Positions 394 through 59,462 of a stretch of 64,000 nucleotides of DNA are shown in pieces; position 1 is the stretch's first letter, and each line of letters begins with the position of its first letter. The stretch lies in assembly GCA_035772405.1 (NCBI GenBank), contig JAYKKM010000381.1:618001-682000 (forward strand), in the 5' to 3' direction. The notes beneath the pieces are model-generated. The model saw only the letters and a program-made list of their open reading frames with translations. It did no database searches and was not told the DNA's origin. Both the position numbers and the translations under genes were made by a program. The DNA is from Chrysogorgia sp. JL179-B06. Taxonomy: Eukaryota > Cnidaria > Anthozoa > Scleralcyonacea > Chrysogorgiidae.

Positions 394-592
394 TGAATAT
401 ATACGTTTTAAGATCAAACCGGGACCAGTTGCGAGAAATGCAACTTAAAGGCCTTCCGGCTGGAATTGAACCCGCGACCCTGCGATGCTAGTGCAGTGCT
501 CTGACCACTGAGCTACGCAGGCCGTTGCCGAGAGCCTAATGTATATATTCCAACACGGTGAAGGAGTGTTGGAATATATACATATATATATA
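394..592 (-). mobile_element. tRNA-derived SINE-like repeat (Ala-like head)
   Basis: On the minus strand, 523-450 reads like a tRNA: an A box in GTAGCTCAGTGG, an AGC anticodon loop, and a B box GGTTCAATTCC. The acceptor and T stems no longer pair well, so it is not a functional tRNA. Flanking sequence (AAGATCAAACCGGGACCAG) recurs at 21960-22050 and 48795-48830, which makes this a dispersed element. Confidence 0.6.
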
Positions 593-8283: not shown

Positions 8284-8690
8284 AACGATAATCTTTGCTC
8301 ACAAACAGCTAAAATGTCGATCGGATAAATAAGTTCTGTGACAGCCATCAAGAAGAAAAACGAGAAGATTGGATGCTTTTCTTCACAGTTAAGAGCGTTT
8401 ATGTTCATTTCAGCAGCCGACGACGCTGTCTAGCGTGAGTAAGGAGAATGTATATTTTCATCATTTTAATAAAAGAGTATTACTATTTCTTCAGTGTTAT
8501 TTTATAAAAGAAATAGAAAACATTTTAACGTGTTTACATACATTTATAGAAACACTCGTAAAAGTTTGGGAGAACTCGAAATAGCGTGGAAACACTCGCC
8601 CTGCGGGCTGGTGTTCCCACTAATTTCTCGTTCTCCCAAACTTCCACTCGTGTTTCTATAACTGTATGTAAACACTATTTCTTAAATTGA
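8284..8690. repeat. Dispersed repeat ending in a hairpin (copy 1)
   Basis: About 400 bp is nearly identical to 22205-22600. The right third is a palindrome (AAACACTCGTAAAAGTTTGG against its complement). The centre is ACTCGCCCTGCGGGCTGGTG, which is deleted in the second copy. Confidence 0.85.
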
Positions 8691-22204: not shown

Positions 22205-22600
22205 GACGAACCTTTGCTCACAAACAGCTAAAATGTCGATAAATATGTTCTGTGACAGCCAACAAGAAGAAAAACGAGAAGATTGGATGCTTTTCTTCAC
22301 AGTTAAGAGCGTTTATGTTCATTTGAGCAGCCGACGACGCTGTCTAGCGTGAGTAAGGAGAATGTATATTTTCATCATTTTAATAAAAGTCTTATTACTT
22401 ATTTCCTCAGTGTTATTTTATAAAAGAAATAGAAAACATCTTTCCGTGTTTACATACAGTTATAGAAACACTCGTAAAAGTTTGGGAGAACTCGAAATAG
22501 CGTGGAAACACTCGCCCCCACTAATTTCTCGTCCTCCCAAACTTCCACTCGTGTTTCTATAACTGTATGTAAACACGGAAAATGTTTTCTATTTCTTAAA
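22205..22600. repeat. Dispersed repeat ending in a hairpin (copy 2)
   Basis: Nearly identical to 8284-8690, but the hairpin centre is shortened (CACTCGCCCCCACTAATTTC). Confidence 0.85.
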
Positions 22601-33009: not shown

Positions 33010-35000
33010 TGCACATTGATTCAACAGTGAAATACAAAGAACGTTTGGGAATTGAGCGAATTCGCTCAATATTTGAGTTTTAATTTTGAGTAATAATTAC
33101 ATAAGTACATTACATAAATACATTACATAAGTACAATTTTTATACGAAGGGTGTACACGTTCTCGTAATACAATAGACACATATATGTTATGTATTTAGA
33201 TTCGGTAATTCCAAAACTGTTTTCAGAATTGAAATCGCCAAATATTGGCCGAGATATAACGTTCAAAATCTACGTACGACGAACCGGTCTTTTGGGATTT
33301 GTTATCGACAGACGCGGTATGGGCACTGGGGACCATGGATTGAGAAAAGAAACTATAGGGGTGGGGTGGGGTGGGGGTAGTGCTAGAAAAGGCAAGCGAG
33401 GGAATTGTTGCGGATTCGTATTTCTAGTTTACATGGGAAATCGGCGCGTAGTCAGGTCGGCCTGAAGTGTTCAGGTCTAGCAACCGACCCGAGTTTAGGC
33501 TAACCTGTGTACAGCCGGGAACCTCGTGGATTATAGCCGGGTGTATGCAGGGCGTACACAGGCTAAGGCAAAATAATATTTTGGGCTCGCATTTTGAGTT
33601 TGCCTAAGTAACCAGGCCTTATCCAAAATGGCAGCCAATATTGGGGTTAGGGTCAGACAACTCGTTAGGCGGTGGGTTAGAGTTAGAAAACTCGTTAGGT
33701 GGGGGGTTAGGGTTAGGATCTTTGTTGTTTTGGGGTTAGTGGTTATTTACATGGTTAAGTGACAAAATTCTGACGATTATATAGCTCCCATTTTAGCTAA
33801 TACTGGCGGCCATTTTGAATAAGGCCTGGTTACACAGGAAATTTCGAAAAACGAGCACAAAATATTATTCTGCCAGGCTGGTTTAGGTCGGCGTGACCTG
33901 AATCTCAGGCAGGACCCAGGTCAGTCGGACCTGAACTCAGGCGAGCCTCGTGTAAGCACCACCTTACATGGCGTGATTGAGAAGATAATAGGAGATAGCT
34001 AATTAAAAAACACAATTAATATTTACATTGTCTATTATGTCTAATGTTATAATGGGTGTTAAGAGGTCGTAGGCCATGTGCCTCTTTGTGTAAGACCGTG
34101 AGAAAATGTCTATCAATTGTCTTTAAACCAATTTCTTTAATACACGATTCGAAAAGGGATTCCGCGTGCTTTCGTATAACCGCGAACTCGTTTTGCCATT
34201 TATACGATAATAAGGACCTAATGTGAGTGTTTTCGGAAGAAATAATTGGTGTAAATCCATTGTTGCTAGCTTACTGCATTTATCACCGTAGTTATCCCAA
34301 AATATCCCTCAATTCATCTGCACCTGTTAAGCCCCAAGCGTGATGCTTCTTCGCCGATCCTCGGGAGTTTTATTGATATTAGAGACCTTAAGATCTACGA
34401 CGGCAACCTAGGACCATAGATTTAGGAGCTTAGGACGGGCACGTCGTTCAAACAAAAGAATCTTTATGCGAAACAAAAAGAATGTATCATGTTTATTCCC
34501 AAGAGTAGTCTCAACGCCGTTCTCGTTCTGTTTACAACGCCATTGAGAACATGTTCACGTCTTTAGGACGACGGTAACTCACGGAGAGATGACAGCTGTT
34601 CCTTAAGACTACCTTAAACACAGACACTACAATCGTTTTAGAAATATTGAAGCGTTTTGTAGATCATAAAACAAACTGGAGTGTCAAATACGCGCTAGTC
34701 AATCGACCGTGGTTTCGTGCAAATGCTAAAATTTATATTGCTTTCACTGCCGTCGCCGTCCTAGGTTGCCGTCGTAGATGGCTTAAGTTTGGTTCGAGGG
34801 TGGGGCGTTTTGACCTGTTCGTCCAAAGTAATTCCAAGCCTTTGTGACATTGAGAGATGGATGCCTCGTGGTAGAAGCTGTCATCGTCTTTAAAATACCA
34901 GTTAAGAACTTGGTTCTCCCCATTCATTTCAATTAATACAATGAAAGTAAATTCTAACAAAATGCTAATCTGTGTTTTTTAACATTTTACAGCTCATAGA

Positions 35001-36289: not shown

Positions 36290-36870
36290 AAGAGTGAATG
36301 AGTGGGTGAGTGAGGGAGGGAGGGAGTGAAGGAGTGAGGTAGGGAGTGAAGGAGTGAGGTAGGGAGTGAAAGAGTGAGTGAGTGGATGAGTGAGGCAGGG
36401 AGTGAGTGAGTGAGCGAGTGAGTGCGTGAGGGAGATGGTTAGGGAGATAGTTAGGGAGTGTGTGGGTGAGTAAGGGAGGGAGGGAAAGTGAGTGAGATAG
36501 TTAGGGAGTGAGTGAGTGAGCGAGCGAGTGAGGGAGGGGGGAAGGGAGCGAGCGAGTGAGTGAGTGAGCGAGTGAGGGAGCGAGTGAGTGCGTGAAAGTG
36601 AGTGAGTAAGTGCGTGCGTGCGTGCGTGAAAGAGTGAGTGAGGGGGGAAGGGAGCGAGCAAGCGAGTGAGCGAGCGAGTGAGGGAGTGAGTGAGGGAGTG
36701 AGGGAGTGCGTGAGTGAGTGAAAGTGAGTGAGTGAAAGTGAGTGAGTGAGTGCGTGCGTGAAAGTGAGTGAGTGAGGGAGAGAGGGAGGGAGGGAGGGAG
36801 CGAGTGAAAGTGAGTGAGGGAGTGCGTGAGTGAGGGAGGGAGTGCGTGAAATCGAGTGAGTGAGCTGGAC
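36290..36870. repeat. GAGT/GAGG minisatellite, unit 1
   Basis: Interleaved GTGAGTGAGTGAGGGAGGGA units with occasional GCGTGC and AAAGT. On the minus strand this reads as Ser/Leu/Thr/His-rich ORFs that are not genes. Confidence 0.95.
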
Positions 36871-37690: not shown

Positions 37691-39546
37691 CGTCTTTTTA
37701 GATTTTTAACAATTTTTTAAACCATAAATAAATTAGATTGTCCAGAACATGCAGTTGACTGACATTTTCAAATTGCGGAGCTCCATTCGTTTACTAAATA
37801 ACTGTTTTCAGAATTGAAATCGCCAAATATTGGCCGAGATATAACGTTCAAAATCTACGTACGACGAACCGGTCTTTTGGGATTTGTTATCGACAGACGA
37901 GTCCATGGATTGGGAAAAGAAACTCTAGGGGTGGGGTGGGGTGGGGGTAGAAAAGGCGAGCGACTGAGCGAGGGAATTGTCGCGGATTCGTATTTCTAGT
38001 TTACATGGGAAATCGGCGCGTAGTCAGGTCGGCCTGAAGTGTTGAGGTCTAGCAACCGACCCGAGTTTAGGCTAACCTGTGCACAGCCGGGAACCTCGTG
38101 GATTATAGCCGGGTGTATGCAGGCCGTACACAGGCTAAGGCAAAATAATATTTTGGGCTCGCATTTTGAGTTTGCCTAAGTAACCAGGCCTTATCCAAAA
38201 TGGCAGCCAATATTGGGGTTAGGGTCAGACAACTCGTTAGGCGGTGGGTTAGAGTTAGAAAACTCGTTAGGTGGGGGGTTAGGGTTAGGATCTTTGTTGT
38301 TTTGGGGTTAGTGGTTATTTACATGGTTAAGTGACAAAATTCTGACGATTATATAGCTCCCATTTTAGCTAATACTGGCGGCCATTTTGAATAAGGCCTG
38401 GTTACACAGGAAATTTCGAAAAACGAGCACAAAATATTATTCTGCCAGGCTGGTTTAGGCCGGCGTGACCTGAATCTCAGGCAGGACCCAGGTCAGTCGG
38501 ACCTGACCTCAGGCGAGCCTCGTGTAAACACCACCTTACATGGCGTGGTTGAGAAGATAATAGGAGATAGCTAATTAAAAAACACAATTAATATTTACAT
38601 TGTCTATTGTGTCTAATTTATAATGGGTGTTAAGAGGTCGTAGGCCATGTGCCTCTTTGTGTAAGACCGTGAGAAAATTTCTATCAATTGTCTTCAAACC
38701 AATTTCTTTAATACCCGCGTGCTTTCGTATAACCGCGAACTCGTTTTGCCATTTATACGATAATAATGACCTAATATGAATGTTTTCGGAAGAAATAATT
38801 GGTGTAAATCCATTGTCGCCAGCTTACTGCATTTATCACCGTAGTAACGTTATCCCCAAATATCCCTCAATTCATCTGCACCTGTTAAGCCCCAAGCGTG
38901 ATGCTTCTCCCCGATCCTCGGGAGTTTGATTGATATTAGAGACCTTAAGTTCTACGACGGCAACCTAGGACCATAGATTTAGGAGCTTAGGACGGGCACG
39001 TCGTTCAAACAAAAGAATATTTATGCGAAACAAAAAGAATGTATCATGTTTATTCCCAAGAGTAATTTCAACGCCGTTCTCGTTCTGTTTACAACGCCAC
39101 TGAGAGCATTTTCACGTCTTTAGGACGACGGTAACTCGCGGAGAGATGACAGCTGTTCCTTAAGACTACCTTAAACACAGACACTACAATCGTTTTAGAA
39201 ATATTGAAGCGTTTTGTAGATCATAAAACAAACTGGAGTGTCAAATACGCTAGTCAATCGACCGTGGTTTCGTGCAAATGCTAAAATTTATATTGCTTTC
39301 ACTGCCGTCGCCGTCCTAGGTTGCCGTCGTAGATGGCTTAAGTTTGGTTCGAGGGTGGGGCGTTTTGACCTGTTCGTCCAAAGTAATTCCAAACCTTTGT
39401 GACATTGAGAGATGGATGCCTCGTGGTAGAAGCTGTTATCGTCTTTAAAATACCAGTTATAAACTTGGTTCTCCCCATTCATTTCAATAAATACAATGAA
39501 AGTAAATTCTAACAAAATGCTAATCTGTGTTTTTAAACATTTTACA

Positions 39547-40839: not shown

Positions 40840-41245
40840 GGAGTGAGTGAATGGGTGTGTGAGTGAGGGAGGGAGTGAGTGAAAGTGAGCGAGTGAGGGA
40901 GCGAGTGAGGGAGTGAGGGAGGGAGAGAGGGAGGGAGAGGGAGTGAGTGCATGAAAGTGAGTGAGTGAGGGAGCGAGTGAGTGAGCGAGTGAGAGAGTGA
41001 GGGAGGGAGGGAGGGAGAGGGAGAGAGAGAGAGAAAGAGCTACCGAGCGAGTGAGTGAGTGAGTAATAATGATATAATAATGATAATAGTAATAATGATA
41101 GAGTGAGTGAGTGAGTGAGTAAGTGAGTGAGTGGGTGAGTGAGTGAGTAACAATGATATAATGATAATAGTAGAGTGAGTGAGTGAGTGAGTGAGTGAGA
41201 GAGTGAGTGAGTGAGTGAGTGAGTGAGTGAGTGAGTGAGTAAGCT
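40840..41245. repeat. GAGT minisatellite, unit 2
   Basis: Shorter equivalent of 36290-36870, broken by TAATAATGATA stretches at 41065-41100 and 41147-41172. Confidence 0.95.
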
Positions 41246-47474: not shown

Positions 47475-48186
47475 GTGAAAGGCAACTAGTATCTGATTGT
47501 TTCGTTGTTGAGATTGTTGATATTGAAACCCGCTGTGCATTGGCGCGGTCTGACCCGTCACACGTGGCTCGCCATCGCGAGTTTTGAAACATCCCACGGA
47601 AGAACAGGAAGCGCATCCTGTGCAGTTGAATTGTAAAACAAATTCTTATGTTTGCTAAAACAAGTACAATGTTTGCTTCTGCTTTGTCTACGAAGTCGCA
47701 TGTTGATATAAAGAATTATTAACAATAACACATTGTATAGTCCACATGCATGTATTGCCTTCGTTCGGCAGTGTAAACATAGTCTATATTTACATTGGAA
47801 ATACGTATACGCAACAACCCCTCGACCGCCTGTCTTATTTTATAATTATTTCAAAGAATATATAATATGTTTCGCAATCAGAATGGTAAATCGCAAAAGC
47901 CCGTTTCGACTTAGATTTTGAACTTTATCTCCGTCAATATTTGACCGATTTCAATTCTGAAAACAGATTTTGAATTACTGTGACTAACTACATGCATGCC
48001 CTTCGTAAAAATAAAAATAAATGTTTATGTAATTACGCCGTGGATACAGGTCCGACAAAATTTCAATAATCGTAACCCTAAAAAACCCTAATCCTAACCC
48101 TAACCAAACCCTAAATATCCCTACAAATTTTCGGGCCTCACGGCATAGAAATTTACCGGCCATGTTTGTATATATATATATATATT
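47475..48186. other. Downstream of the bHLH gene; dispersed repeat
   Basis: This includes the probable 3' UTR of the bHLH gene. 47930-48010 matches the dispersed family at 11560-12440 (GACCGATTTCAATTCTGAAA). 48075-48120 has CCTAACCCTAACC-like telomeric repeats. No other gene was seen. Confidence 0.4.
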
Positions 48187-48193
48187 ACAATAT

Positions 48194-48235
48194 CTACAGA
48201 CACGTGTTTCGCTGTTCCACAGCTCATCAGTGTAG
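48194..48235 (-). ncRNA. Type I hammerhead ribozyme, copy 1
   Basis: Minus-strand RNA: stem I CUACA pairs with UGUAG; core CUGAUGA; stem II GCUGU-GGA-ACAGC; core GAA then ACAC/GUGU (stem III, no loop) and C17. Predicted cleavage follows that C (48199), before UGUAG. All invariant core bases are present. The loop-less self-complementary stem III suggests it works as a dimer, as reported for retrozyme and Penelope hammerheads. Confidence 0.9.
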
Positions 48236-48473
48236 CTTGGTACAATCTAGATATGGGCATGAGTACTAATTATACACAAACGATTGCCAGTGACAACCGC
48301 TTGTGGGATAAACAGCGGTCATGCGCACATCCAGAGAGCGTGAAGCGGTATAGGGCCAGAGTGCTCAAACTACCACAAGGGTAGTGGGCGTTGCATTATC
48401 GCTAAAGGACACCTACACCAACTTCACAGAGTGCTCAACAACACCGAAGTGAAGGAGCGTAATAGTACAATAT

Positions 48474-48515
48474 CTACAGACACGTGTTTCGCTGTTCCAC
48501 AGCTCATCAGTGTAG
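48474..48515 (-). ncRNA. Type I hammerhead ribozyme, copy 2
   Basis: Identical to copy 1, exactly 280 bp away. Two self-cleavage sites in one transcript would release a 280-nt monomer with ends suited to circularisation. Confidence 0.9.
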
Positions 48516-48845
48516 CTTGGTACAATCTAGATATGGGCATGAGTACTAATTATACACAAACGATTGCCAGTGACAACCGCTTGTGGGATAAACAGCGGTC
48601 ATGCGCACATCCAGAGAGCGTGAAGCGGTATAGGGCCAGAGTGCTCAAACTACCACAAGGGTAGTGGGCGTTGCATTATATATAATATATATATTATATA
48701 TATATATATATATAATAGGTAATATTTGGCATTTCACTCGATTGAACTACTGTACATGTTCTAAGGATTTGTGGTGAAGGAAAATTTCGAGTGTTGGAAT
48801 ATATACATTTTAAGACCAAACCGGGACACAAACTTGTCCCACAAG

Positions 48846-49055
48846 CGGTTGTCACCAGACAACCTAGTTTGAGCACTCTGGCCCTACACCGCTTCACGCT
48901 CTCTGGATGTGCGCATGACCGCTGTTTGTCCCACAAGCCGTAGCGGTTGTCACTGGCAATCGCTTGGGTATAATTATGCCCATATCTAGATTGCACCAAG
49001 CTACACTGATGAGCTGTGGAACTGGAACGAACAGCGAAACGCGTGTCTGTAGATT

Positions 49056-49058
<3 letters not shown>
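48846..49058 (+). mobile_element. Inverted retrozyme copy
   Basis: Diverged reverse-oriented copy of the 280-bp unit (GTTTGAGCACTCTGGCCCTA, then CGCTTCACGCTCTCTGGATG). A small internal duplication of the CCCACAAGC/CGGTTGTCA segment lies at its left. Confidence 0.8.
49001..49052 (+). ncRNA. Hammerhead ribozyme with enlarged loop 2
   Basis: CUACA, CUGAUGA, stem II GCUGU/ACAGC closing a longer loop (GGAACUGGAACGA), GAAA, stem III ACGC/GUGU with one G-U pair, C17, UGUAG. The core is complete, so it may still cleave. Confidence 0.8.
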
Positions 49059-49062
<4 letters not shown>

Positions 49063-49210: not shown

Positions 49211-49345
49211 ATAGTACAATCTACATGAGACACATGTTTCATCTCATCAGTGTAGCTCGGTACAATCTAGACATGGCATGAGAACTATTTGTCCCACAAG
49301 CGATTGTGGGATAATAGCAGTCATGCTATTATATCATACTAGGAC
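49211..49345 (-). mobile_element. Degraded retrozyme copy
   Basis: CUACA-CUGAUGA (49242-49253) and GAAACAUGUGUC are present, but stem II is reduced to GAU, so the ribozyme (49219-49253) is probably dead. The body is truncated after GGATAATAGCAGTCATGC. Confidence 0.7.
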
Positions 49346-49487: not shown

Positions 49488-49566
49488 AACAATTATCCAG
49501 ACCTCGGTCAATGTTATCCACATCAGCATTCGGCAGATAACATTGACCTTGGTCTGGATAATTCTT
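49488..49566. repeat. Long hairpin
   Basis: AATTATCCAGACCTCGGTCA ATGTTATC folds on GATAACATTGACCTTGGTCT GGATAATT with a 17-base loop and one mismatch. Confidence 0.9.
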
Positions 49567-58645: not shown

Positions 58646-58984
58646 ATGGTCTCACCGGCAATCAGGATAGATTAAAGTGCCTATGCAATGAAACATTCAG
58701 TTGTAAAATAACTCTTATTTGAAAGAACTCTTGAAACTATAAAGACTAACAACCATTTACAACTTTTTCATATCTCACTTCACTCTTGAGATATTAAGAT
58801 TTGTTTAATATGTAAATGATCATACTTATGACATCACACTGCATATTGAAAAATTCTGCATATCTTTACCAGTATCACATGGAATAGTTTCTGGACAATG
58901 ACGAAACTTGACTGGCAAGTTGGTCACCACAATTCTAATATTACTGTTAGGTTTCGTCATTGTCCAAGTAACACTAAAAGTGCT

Positions 58985-59411
58985 TAAGAAATACAGTGCA
59001 CCAGCAAAAGACCTTCTGGCGTTTTATTGCTCAATAACTCGATCAGTGTCGGAATATGGTGGCATATTGTGGCACGGAGGCCTAACATCATCAGAAAGCC
59101 AAGACATTGAAAGAATTCAGAAACGAGCACTTAGGATTATAGCTCCAGATTTAAAATACGAAGAAGCTTTAGCAACATATAAATCACCTTCTCTTAAAGA
59201 AAGACGGGAGAAGCACTGCGTAGAATTAATTAGGCGAATGCTATCTCCGTCGCATAAGCTACATCATCTCCTTCCAGAAAAAGTTCAAAACGTTTGGGAA
59301 AGAAATACAAGATATAATGGTAATAAACTTTATAATTTTAAATGTAAAACTGAATGTTTTAAAAATAGCCCATTGGTGTATGCAATTGATAAATATAATA
59401 GTAGTATTTAA
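58985..59411 (+). pseudogene. Jockey/CR1-like LINE ORF2 C-terminus
   Basis: It encodes LAFYCSITRSVSEYGGILWH, then ERIQKRALRIIAPDLKYEEA and HKLHHLLPEKVQNVWERNTR with a stop at 59409-59411. This is the final segment of a non-LTR reverse transcriptase. The start is lost in a MITE arm. Confidence 0.75.
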
Positions 59412-59462
59412 TGTTTTTAGTCGTTATGACTTATATATAGATATTTAGATATATATATATAT

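What the first reader, a model, noticed from the sequence alone, without database searches (positions are those of the whole stretch)
48187..48681. Tandem 280-bp retrozyme-like repeat with perfect hammerhead ribozymes
Both copies carry all invariant hammerhead bases (CUGAUGA, GAAA, C17) with a fully paired 5-bp stem I, 5-bp stem II and a self-complementary 4-bp loop-less stem III. 213 bases are identical between copies, so the duplication is young. Tandem hammerheads 280 nt apart would release a monomer that can circularise, which is the proposed retrozyme life cycle.
Basis: partly seen in the sequence, partly recalled or inferred. Interest (0 to 1): 0.88.

Follow-up and report, generated by a model that had tools for sequence, protein, structure and literature searches.

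The report
Young self-cutting RNA retroelement (retrozyme)
This is a recent insertion of a small non-coding jumping element that carries its own predicted RNA-cutting ribozyme, belongs to an abundant family in this animal genome, and nearly always joins at TA-repeat DNA in the way Penelope-type retrotransposons there do, which suggests what moves it.

Summary
Two minus-strand copies lie 280 nt apart, identical over 213 bp, each with a complete type I hammerhead whose stem III is a loopless palindrome (0 such hits in 100 shuffled windows). A third intact and a fourth broken relative lie beside them.

The source genome (781 Mb, unnamed, perhaps a cnidarian) holds 2,750 matching hammerhead sites of this and a second family. 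Among 39 independent loci sampled, 38 end 3' in (TA)n (baseline 0.9%), mostly exactly 14 nt past the cut; 5' ends vary. In 26 of 26 loci with two or more scorable copies all carry one allele, so each array was probably copied from one circular RNA.

Three Penelope-like (PLE) families also end in (TA)n: A 31 of 36, F1 5 of 5, F2 5 of 5; family A shows the two-site PLE tail. A LINE-like control does so in 0 of 14.

Verdict: a new member of the metazoan non-LTR retrozymes. New is the shared junction signature, which makes PLE-driven, (TA)n-primed copying of retrozyme circles the best-supported mechanism. Cleavage, circles and PLE use are inferred.

The parts
48182..48461 (-). full 280-nt retrozyme unit (copy A), 3'-proximal in the sense RNA
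48462..48679 (-). 5'-truncated unit (copy B, 218 nt); identical to copy A from 48467
48194..48235 (-). hammerhead A; predicted cleavage between 48199 and 48198
48474..48515 (-). hammerhead B; predicted cleavage between 48479 and 48478
48199..48478 (-). 280-nt RNA that two cuts would release; predicted circle -94.9 kcal/mol, z -4.84 against 300 shuffles; antisense -71.1
48186..48198 (-). 3' tail kept past the cleavage site (13 nt here; exactly 14 nt in 32 of 40 loci), the inferred reverse-transcription start
48169..48184 (.). (TA)n on the sense 3' side, the inferred target
48680..48714 (.). TA-repeat DNA on the sense 5' side
48865..49062 (+). copy 3: divergent relative (85%) in the opposite orientation, also ending in (TA)n
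49001..49052 (+). hammerhead of copy 3 (longer loop II), C17 at 49047
49214..49306 (-). copy 4: decayed relative whose hammerhead has lost stem II (by eye); ends in TA-rich DNA

Best explanation
This is a young insertion of a metazoan non-LTR retrozyme, a non-coding 280-nt retroelement. Proposed cycle: (1) an array is transcribed by read-through [inferred]; (2) hammerheads in neighbouring units pair through the self-complementary stem III and cut as a dimer, releasing 280-nt monomers [inferred from sequence and folding]; (3) a host ligase closes the monomer into a circle [inferred; reported in the literature for other metazoan retrozymes]; (4) an endonuclease cuts a genomic (TA)n microsatellite and the TA end primes reverse transcription inside the circle at the UAU 14 nt past the re-joined cleavage site [the junction geometry is shown; the enzyme and the priming are inferred]; (5) the polymerase runs round the circle one to many times and stops at varying points, often joining to TA-rich DNA, leaving a tandem array with a fixed 3' end, a variable 5' end and one allele per array [shown as a genomic pattern]. 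The likely enzyme comes from endonuclease-bearing Penelope-like elements (PLEs) of the same genome: three PLE families, carrying hammerheads or hammerhead-like remnants, show the same 3'-end-into-(TA)n junction.
For: Intact hammerheads: 103 of 124 copies in 39 loci carry the 42-nt hammerhead without change. 3' ends: 38 of 39 independent loci run into (TA)>=10, against 0.91% of 29,320 sampled genome positions and 0.94% of window positions under the same 0-9 nt rule; 32 of 40 do so exactly 14 nt after the cut. 5' ends vary, and 32 of 39 have (TA)>=10 within 50 nt upstream, against 1.3% of sampled positions. One allele per array: 26 loci with at least two scorable copies are 11 pure C, 15 pure T, 0 mixed; 10,000 permutations never gave fewer than 7 mixed. 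All shared variants: 15 fixed and 14 polymorphic array-variant cases, against permutation means of 1.5 and 49. PLEs: family A 3' ends 31 of 36 into (TA)n at two sites (18 and 13), site 1 being 82 nt past its hammerhead cut in 6 of 6 measured copies; F1 5 of 5 and F2 5 of 5 copies reach (TA)n. RT and GIY-YIG matches occur together in an F2 frame and in L178, and in separate frames of family A L048, the RT matches under Pfam's curated cut-off. Control: a LINE-like family ends in (ATT)n with (TA)>=10 in 0 of 14. Literature: a purified PLE starts reverse transcription internally, in RNA not homologous to the cut AT-rich DNA, explaining a 30-40 bp tail (PMC11167929, main text read); Penelope is said to favour simple AT-rich targets (PMC3846280, passages).
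Against: No RNA data: cleavage, circles and PLE binding are untested. Retrozyme 1 shares no sequence with the fetched PLE loci beyond weak similarity in the hammerhead, and its start lies 14 nt past the cut, against 82 nt in PLE A, so a shared RNA signal was not found. Three PLE families and a second retrozyme all use (TA)n, so no single partner is singled out. The published PLE started in RNA not homologous to its target, whereas here a UAU at the start could pair with TA ends. The second retrozyme meets the strict (TA)n test in only 13 of 20 ends. In the published in vitro PLE system hammerhead mutations did not affect insertion, and that hammerhead cut only with protein present. The monomer hammerhead is not the minimum-energy fold (-5.7 without stem III against -9.6), and for the retrozyme 1 dimer the double hammerhead (-24.9) is near but not at the minimum (-26.7). 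F1 gave no RT match in Pfam at E 0.1; the hammerheads of F1 and F2 were judged mostly by eye and F2's lacks the CUGANGA box. Seven of 39 loci have no (TA)>=10 within 50 nt on the 5' side.
Confidence: 0.72

Rival explanations
1. Same retroelement, but the template is an uncut linear multimeric transcript of an existing array; no circle is needed and the hammerhead is a passenger or acts elsewhere.
For: The 3' end lies past the cleavage site, so that site was intact or re-joined in the template. In one purified PLE, ribozyme mutants still insert.
Against: Loci with two or more scorable copies carry one allele each (26 of 26) though both alleles are common in the sample; this needs either parents that were already pure or later homogenisation. 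The hammerhead is unchanged in 103 of 124 copies.
Confidence: 0.17
2. The retrozyme is moved by a machinery other than PLEs, for example a LINE or an unknown element that also prefers (TA)n.
For: Only three PLE families and one LINE-like family were examined. A tRNA-headed SINE-like repeat also has a tail ending at TA repeats, so other machinery may use (TA)n.
Against: All three PLE families examined use (TA)n, and PLEs are described with AT-rich targets and internal starts. The LINE-like control shows 0 of 14.
Confidence: 0.2
3. Ordinary satellite DNA spread by unequal exchange or by DNA circles between TA repeats; the hammerhead is incidental.
For: Tandem organisation; TA repeats may recombine easily; one long array (L021, 18 full units, with internal rearranged pieces) looks like later expansion.
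Against: One end is fixed relative to the ribozyme while the other varies; most sampled loci are short arrays of 1 to 3 full units on many contigs; sense folding is far better than antisense.
Confidence: 0.05
4. A relic or fragment of a PLE itself (a detached pseudo-LTR).
For: Minimal hammerhead with a short stem III and tandem arrangement, as described for PLE pseudo-LTRs.
Against: No similarity to the fetched PLE loci outside the hammerhead; no frame of 90 aa or more lies inside 48182-48679; sense frames on the circle reach only 41 aa.
Confidence: 0.04

Closest known systems
Metazoan non-LTR retrozymes (Cervera and de la Pena 2020, PMC7229834; Results parts 1-2 of 3 and Discussion read)
   Same: Non-coding, 170-400 nt, type I hammerhead in every unit, short tandem arrays, GC below 50%, high copy number, strongly self-paired monomer; PLEs present in the same genome.
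   Different: Stem III is a loopless 4-bp palindrome, nearer the minimal PLE type. Here the insertion junction is resolved: fixed 3' end, mostly 14 nt past the cut, in (TA)n. In the paper 'target' occurs twice and 'microsatellite' not at all, and no target sequence is named in those passages.
Penelope-like elements with endonuclease (Poseidon of Anolis, PMC11167929, main text read)
   Same: Hammerhead near the start site, AT-rich targets, internal start of reverse transcription with a tail, tandem or partial-tandem copies.
   Different: PLEs encode RT and GIY-YIG endonuclease; this element encodes nothing recognisable. Start is 14 nt past the cut, against 82 nt in PLE A of this genome.
Newt and axolotl hammerhead repeats (in PMC7229834)
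   Same: Weak stem III, so the ribozyme is expected to act as a dimer; tandem units of about 300 nt.
   Different: Helix III there is described as one base pair capped by a palindromic tetraloop; unit sequences were not compared here.
Plant LTR retrozymes (described in PMC7761336, passages read)
   Same: Non-autonomous retroelement with hammerheads and a circular RNA intermediate.
   Different: Plants: type III hammerhead, LTRs, primer-binding site, 4-bp target duplications, 600-1000 bp between hammerheads.

Membership tests
Metazoan non-LTR retrozyme | Type I hammerhead in each unit | tested here: met
   Three complete motifs in the window, 0 in 100 shuffles; Rfam aligns over the full model but scores below the gathering threshold
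Metazoan non-LTR retrozyme | Unit of about 170-400 nt in tandem copies | tested here: met
   280 nt; up to 18 full units in one array
Metazoan non-LTR retrozyme | Many dispersed copies | tested here: met
   134 scored matches, 40 of 1,991 candidates scored; 2,750 hammerhead sites, retrozymes 1 and 2 together
Metazoan non-LTR retrozyme | Non-coding | tested here: met
   No frame of 90 aa or more lies inside 48182-48679; longest sense frame on the circle 41 aa, antisense 106 aa
Metazoan non-LTR retrozyme | GC below 50% and stable self-paired monomer | tested here: met
   47.5% GC; z -4.84 for the circle
Metazoan non-LTR retrozyme | No LTR, primer-binding site or polypurine tract | not tested
   No dedicated scan for PBS or PPT was run
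Metazoan non-LTR retrozyme | Canonical loop 1-loop 2 tertiary contacts | tested here: inconclusive
   Loop II is only GGA; a possible stem I internal loop (CAAG/AUAUU, by eye) was not modelled. The paper reports a mussel retrozyme lacking most of these nucleotides
Metazoan non-LTR retrozyme | Target duplications longer than 4 bp when present | tested here: inconclusive
   Insertion within (TA)n hides any duplication
Metazoan non-LTR retrozyme | Self-cleavage and circular RNA in cells | not testable with these tools
   Needs RNA
Penelope-like element | Encodes RT and GIY-YIG endonuclease | tested here: not met
   No frame of 90 aa or more in the unit; no similarity to fetched PLE loci outside the hammerhead

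The most novel reading that the evidence does not exclude
Metazoan retrozyme circles are copied in trans by endonuclease-bearing Penelope-like elements: a cut TA microsatellite primes reverse transcription inside the circle next to the re-joined ribozyme site, and the enzyme rolls round the circle, so retrozymes are to PLEs what SINEs are to LINEs, with the ribozyme-bearing junction serving as the PLE tail.
Probability: 0.55. Interest if true: 0.8.

Novelty: new member of a known kind. Interest (0 to 1): 0.62.

Why it matters
[quoted passage not shown] The shared (TA)n junction, the fixed start next to the ribozyme and the one-allele arrays supply such evidence and give exact, testable coordinates. 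They would also explain why retrozymes are tandem from birth, and they point to a genome with many near-identical arrays for experiments.

Tried and rejected
Rejected: chance hammerhead (0 in 100 shuffles); satellite expansion as the main process; PLE fragment. Rfam at the gathering threshold misses the motif, so 'no Rfam hit' would have misled. A degenerate hammerhead pattern in IMG/VR gave 0. The first LINE-like control fetch (20 of 40 matches) did not reach the element's end: it caught TA runs inside the 3' UTR (11 of 20; one copy, L139, runs straight into a long TA tract). I then fetched the true end for 15 of those 20; L139 and four others were not re-fetched; 14 of 15 had the end anchor. 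L162 and L163 look like one duplicated locus. GIY-YIG loci L049-L053 and L058 have no TA run of 8 nt or more, but in L050 the domain sits in a 190-aa frame between two other long frames and I did not count this family as PLE; no RT profile was run on it.

Sampling: retrozyme 1 and PLE counts come from best-scoring candidates, not a random sample. L036 is a duplicate of L035 by its flanks; it was dropped but kept. PLE A ends are 36 of 47 matches; the other 11 do not reach the 3' end. PLE A ends were not de-duplicated (L066/L067 look like a pair), nor were retrozyme 2 ends (L141/L152, L144/L145, L149/L155 look like pairs). One search leaves out 13 loci with fewer than two copies matching the exact context. 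In one search the line 'perfect 0' came from fuzzy matching that added flanking bases; an exact count gives 103. The partner evidence is by junction, not by shared sequence. Papers asked for but not held: Cervera and de la Pena 2014, Arkhipova 2017, Lunse 2017, Craig 2021, so novelty was checked only in the held library; those four could already report TA targets.

Full report
What is there. The two copies at 48182-48461 and 48462-48679 lie 280 nt apart and agree over 213 positions. Read on the minus strand, each holds a complete type I hammerhead whose stem III is the palindrome ACAC/GUGU without a loop. A descriptor scan finds these two and a third on the plus strand (CUGA box at 49006, C17 at 49047), and none in 100 shuffled windows. 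Rfam aligns both minus-strand copies over the full model but under its gathering score. A fourth relative at 49214-49306 has lost stem II (by eye). The released 280-nt RNA folds as a circle at -94.9 kcal/mol, z -4.84 against 300 shuffles, none of them as low; the antisense circle gives -71.1, near the shuffle mean of -71.8.

The family. The window lies in a 781-Mb genome (G000) that can be searched. The unit gave 134 matches, with 40 of 1,991 candidates scored; I grouped them into 40 loci including the window. L035 and L036 are one insertion by their flanks, leaving 39. A hammerhead pattern with a fixed stem I matches 1,312 + 1,438 sites; the reversed control gives 0. Among the sites that call lists are two main families with different stem II and stem III sequences, each able to pair: retrozyme 1 (280-nt unit, this finding) and retrozyme 2, with repeats mostly 230-231 nt apart. 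The two share only 13 nt at the hammerhead in the 176-nt piece of retrozyme 2 compared. Of 124 retrozyme 1 hammerheads in the 39 loci, 103 carry the exact 42-mer.

Junctions. In sense orientation 32 of 40 arrays turn into (TA)>=10 exactly 14 nt past the predicted cut; the others lie at 11, 13, 13, 15, 21 and 22 nt, and 2 gave none in that script. Scored at the last 3'-complete unit, 38 of 39 independent loci reach (TA)>=10; the exception, L018, has a shorter TA run. Under the same 0-9 nt rule 0.91% of 29,320 positions in 20 arbitrary stretches and 0.94% of window positions pass. The 5' ends vary, cluster where the element begins AT-rich, and have (TA)>=10 within 50 nt upstream in 32 of 39, against 1.3% of sampled positions. 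A fixed 3' and ragged 5' end is the mark of target-primed reverse transcription (established knowledge). Because the 3' end lies past the cut, the template was uncut or re-joined there.

One molecule per array. 92 full units were compared. Shared variants tend to be fixed within an array: 15 fixed and 14 polymorphic cases, against permutation means of 1.5 and 49 (duplicate L036 kept there). For the commonest T/C site, with partial copies included, 26 loci have at least two scorable copies: 11 all C, 15 all T, none mixed; 10,000 permutations never gave fewer than 7 mixed. Thirteen of the 39 loci were not scorable at two copies. A circle of one unit predicts this; a linear multimer would need parents that were already pure.

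Penelope-like elements. GIY-YIG gave 150 matches, with 150 of 3,211 candidates scored. Family A (3' query from L057: 47 matches, 40 of 117 candidates scored) carries a minimal hammerhead and ends in (TA)>=10 in 31 of the 36 copies that reach the 3' end, at two sites (18 and 13 copies), the second 31-45 nt further on; the five misses are L061 (TA run too short), L066, L067, L075 and L085. Site 1 is 82 nt past the cut in 6 of 6 copies measured. This resembles the two start sites and 30-40 bp tail described for PLEs. Families F1 (a hammerhead-like motif) and F2 (a degenerate one, by eye) reach (TA)n in 5 of 5 copies each, F2 at three positions; five copies of each were fetched from those listed. 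RT and GIY-YIG matches occur together in an F2 frame and in L178, in separate frames of family A L048, and GIY-YIG alone in F1; the RT matches lie below Pfam's curated cut-off. A retrozyme 1 fragment sits in the same TA tract as a PLE A end (L090), and three retrozyme 2 units lie beyond an F2 end (L098).

Controls and limits. A LINE-like family (my label by eye; no Pfam hit) ends in (ATT)n and shows (TA)>=10 just after its end in 0 of 14, so (TA)n ends are not general in this genome. GIY-YIG loci L049-L053 and L058 lack TA runs but do not look like PLEs. Retrozyme 2 meets the strict test in 13 of 20. The samples are best-scoring candidates, not random ones. Dimer folding: retrozyme 2 and PLE A give a double-hammerhead-like fold as the minimum; for retrozyme 1 it lies 1.8 kcal/mol above the minimum.

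Host. Among 120 listed relatives (of 822) of a RING-kelch protein of the window, the only ones with an organism name are from the octocoral Paramuricea clavata, at 46-47% identity; unnamed ones reach 68%. A cnidarian is likely but not shown.

Comparison with what is known. The element meets most tested features of metazoan retrozymes, two being inconclusive (PMC7229834: outline, Results parts 1 and 2 of 3, Discussion and passages), and is not a PLE. That paper already proposes PLEs as strong candidates for mobilisation; a review says no motif points to the partner. The junction evidence here is, as far as the searches of the held library show, new, but four key papers are not held. That Penelope favours AT-rich targets is known.

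Noticed in passing
L020, L022, L026, L043, L098; genome-wide: A second retrozyme family (repeat spacing mostly 230-231 bp, stem II GGCC/GGCC, self-complementary stem III ACGGU/ACCGU) that also tends to end a few nt past the cut in (TA)n.
   Followed up: partly
window 48716-48815; L026 and other flanks; window 457-517: A tRNA-headed SINE-like repeat whose tail ends at TA repeats and which recurs about 276 bp apart beside retrozyme arrays; the window's one gathering-level Rfam hit (457-517, tRNA) may be another copy.
   Followed up: no
PLE family A: 11 of 47 matches begin at query 114-124, just upstream of the hammerhead, as if a short hammerhead-plus-tail derivative spreads or reverse transcription stops there.
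   Followed up: no
L017:917, L006:3108: A further hammerhead type with a long stem II; the stem III of L017 is the palindrome ACAGAUCUGU.
   Followed up: no
L049-L053, L058: A multi-copy element with a 190-aa GIY-YIG frame between two other long frames, without TA runs; not identified.
   Followed up: partly
window 49488-49566: A 31-bp inverted repeat (90% complementary), weakly like a miRNA precursor in Rfam (28.1 bits, gathering 70).
   Followed up: no
window 48067-48125: Telomere-like CCCTAA repeats about 60 bp from the insertion.
   Followed up: no
window 33643-33716 and 38215-38288; 8549-8598 and 22465-22514; 36292-36864 and 40841-41240: Repeated pairs of arrays with equal or similar units, suggesting larger duplicated elements.
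   Followed up: no
window 58902-59440: LINE-like open frame (label by eye); its genomic relatives (40 matches) carry an internal TA run in the 3' UTR and end in (ATT)n; used as control.
   Followed up: partly
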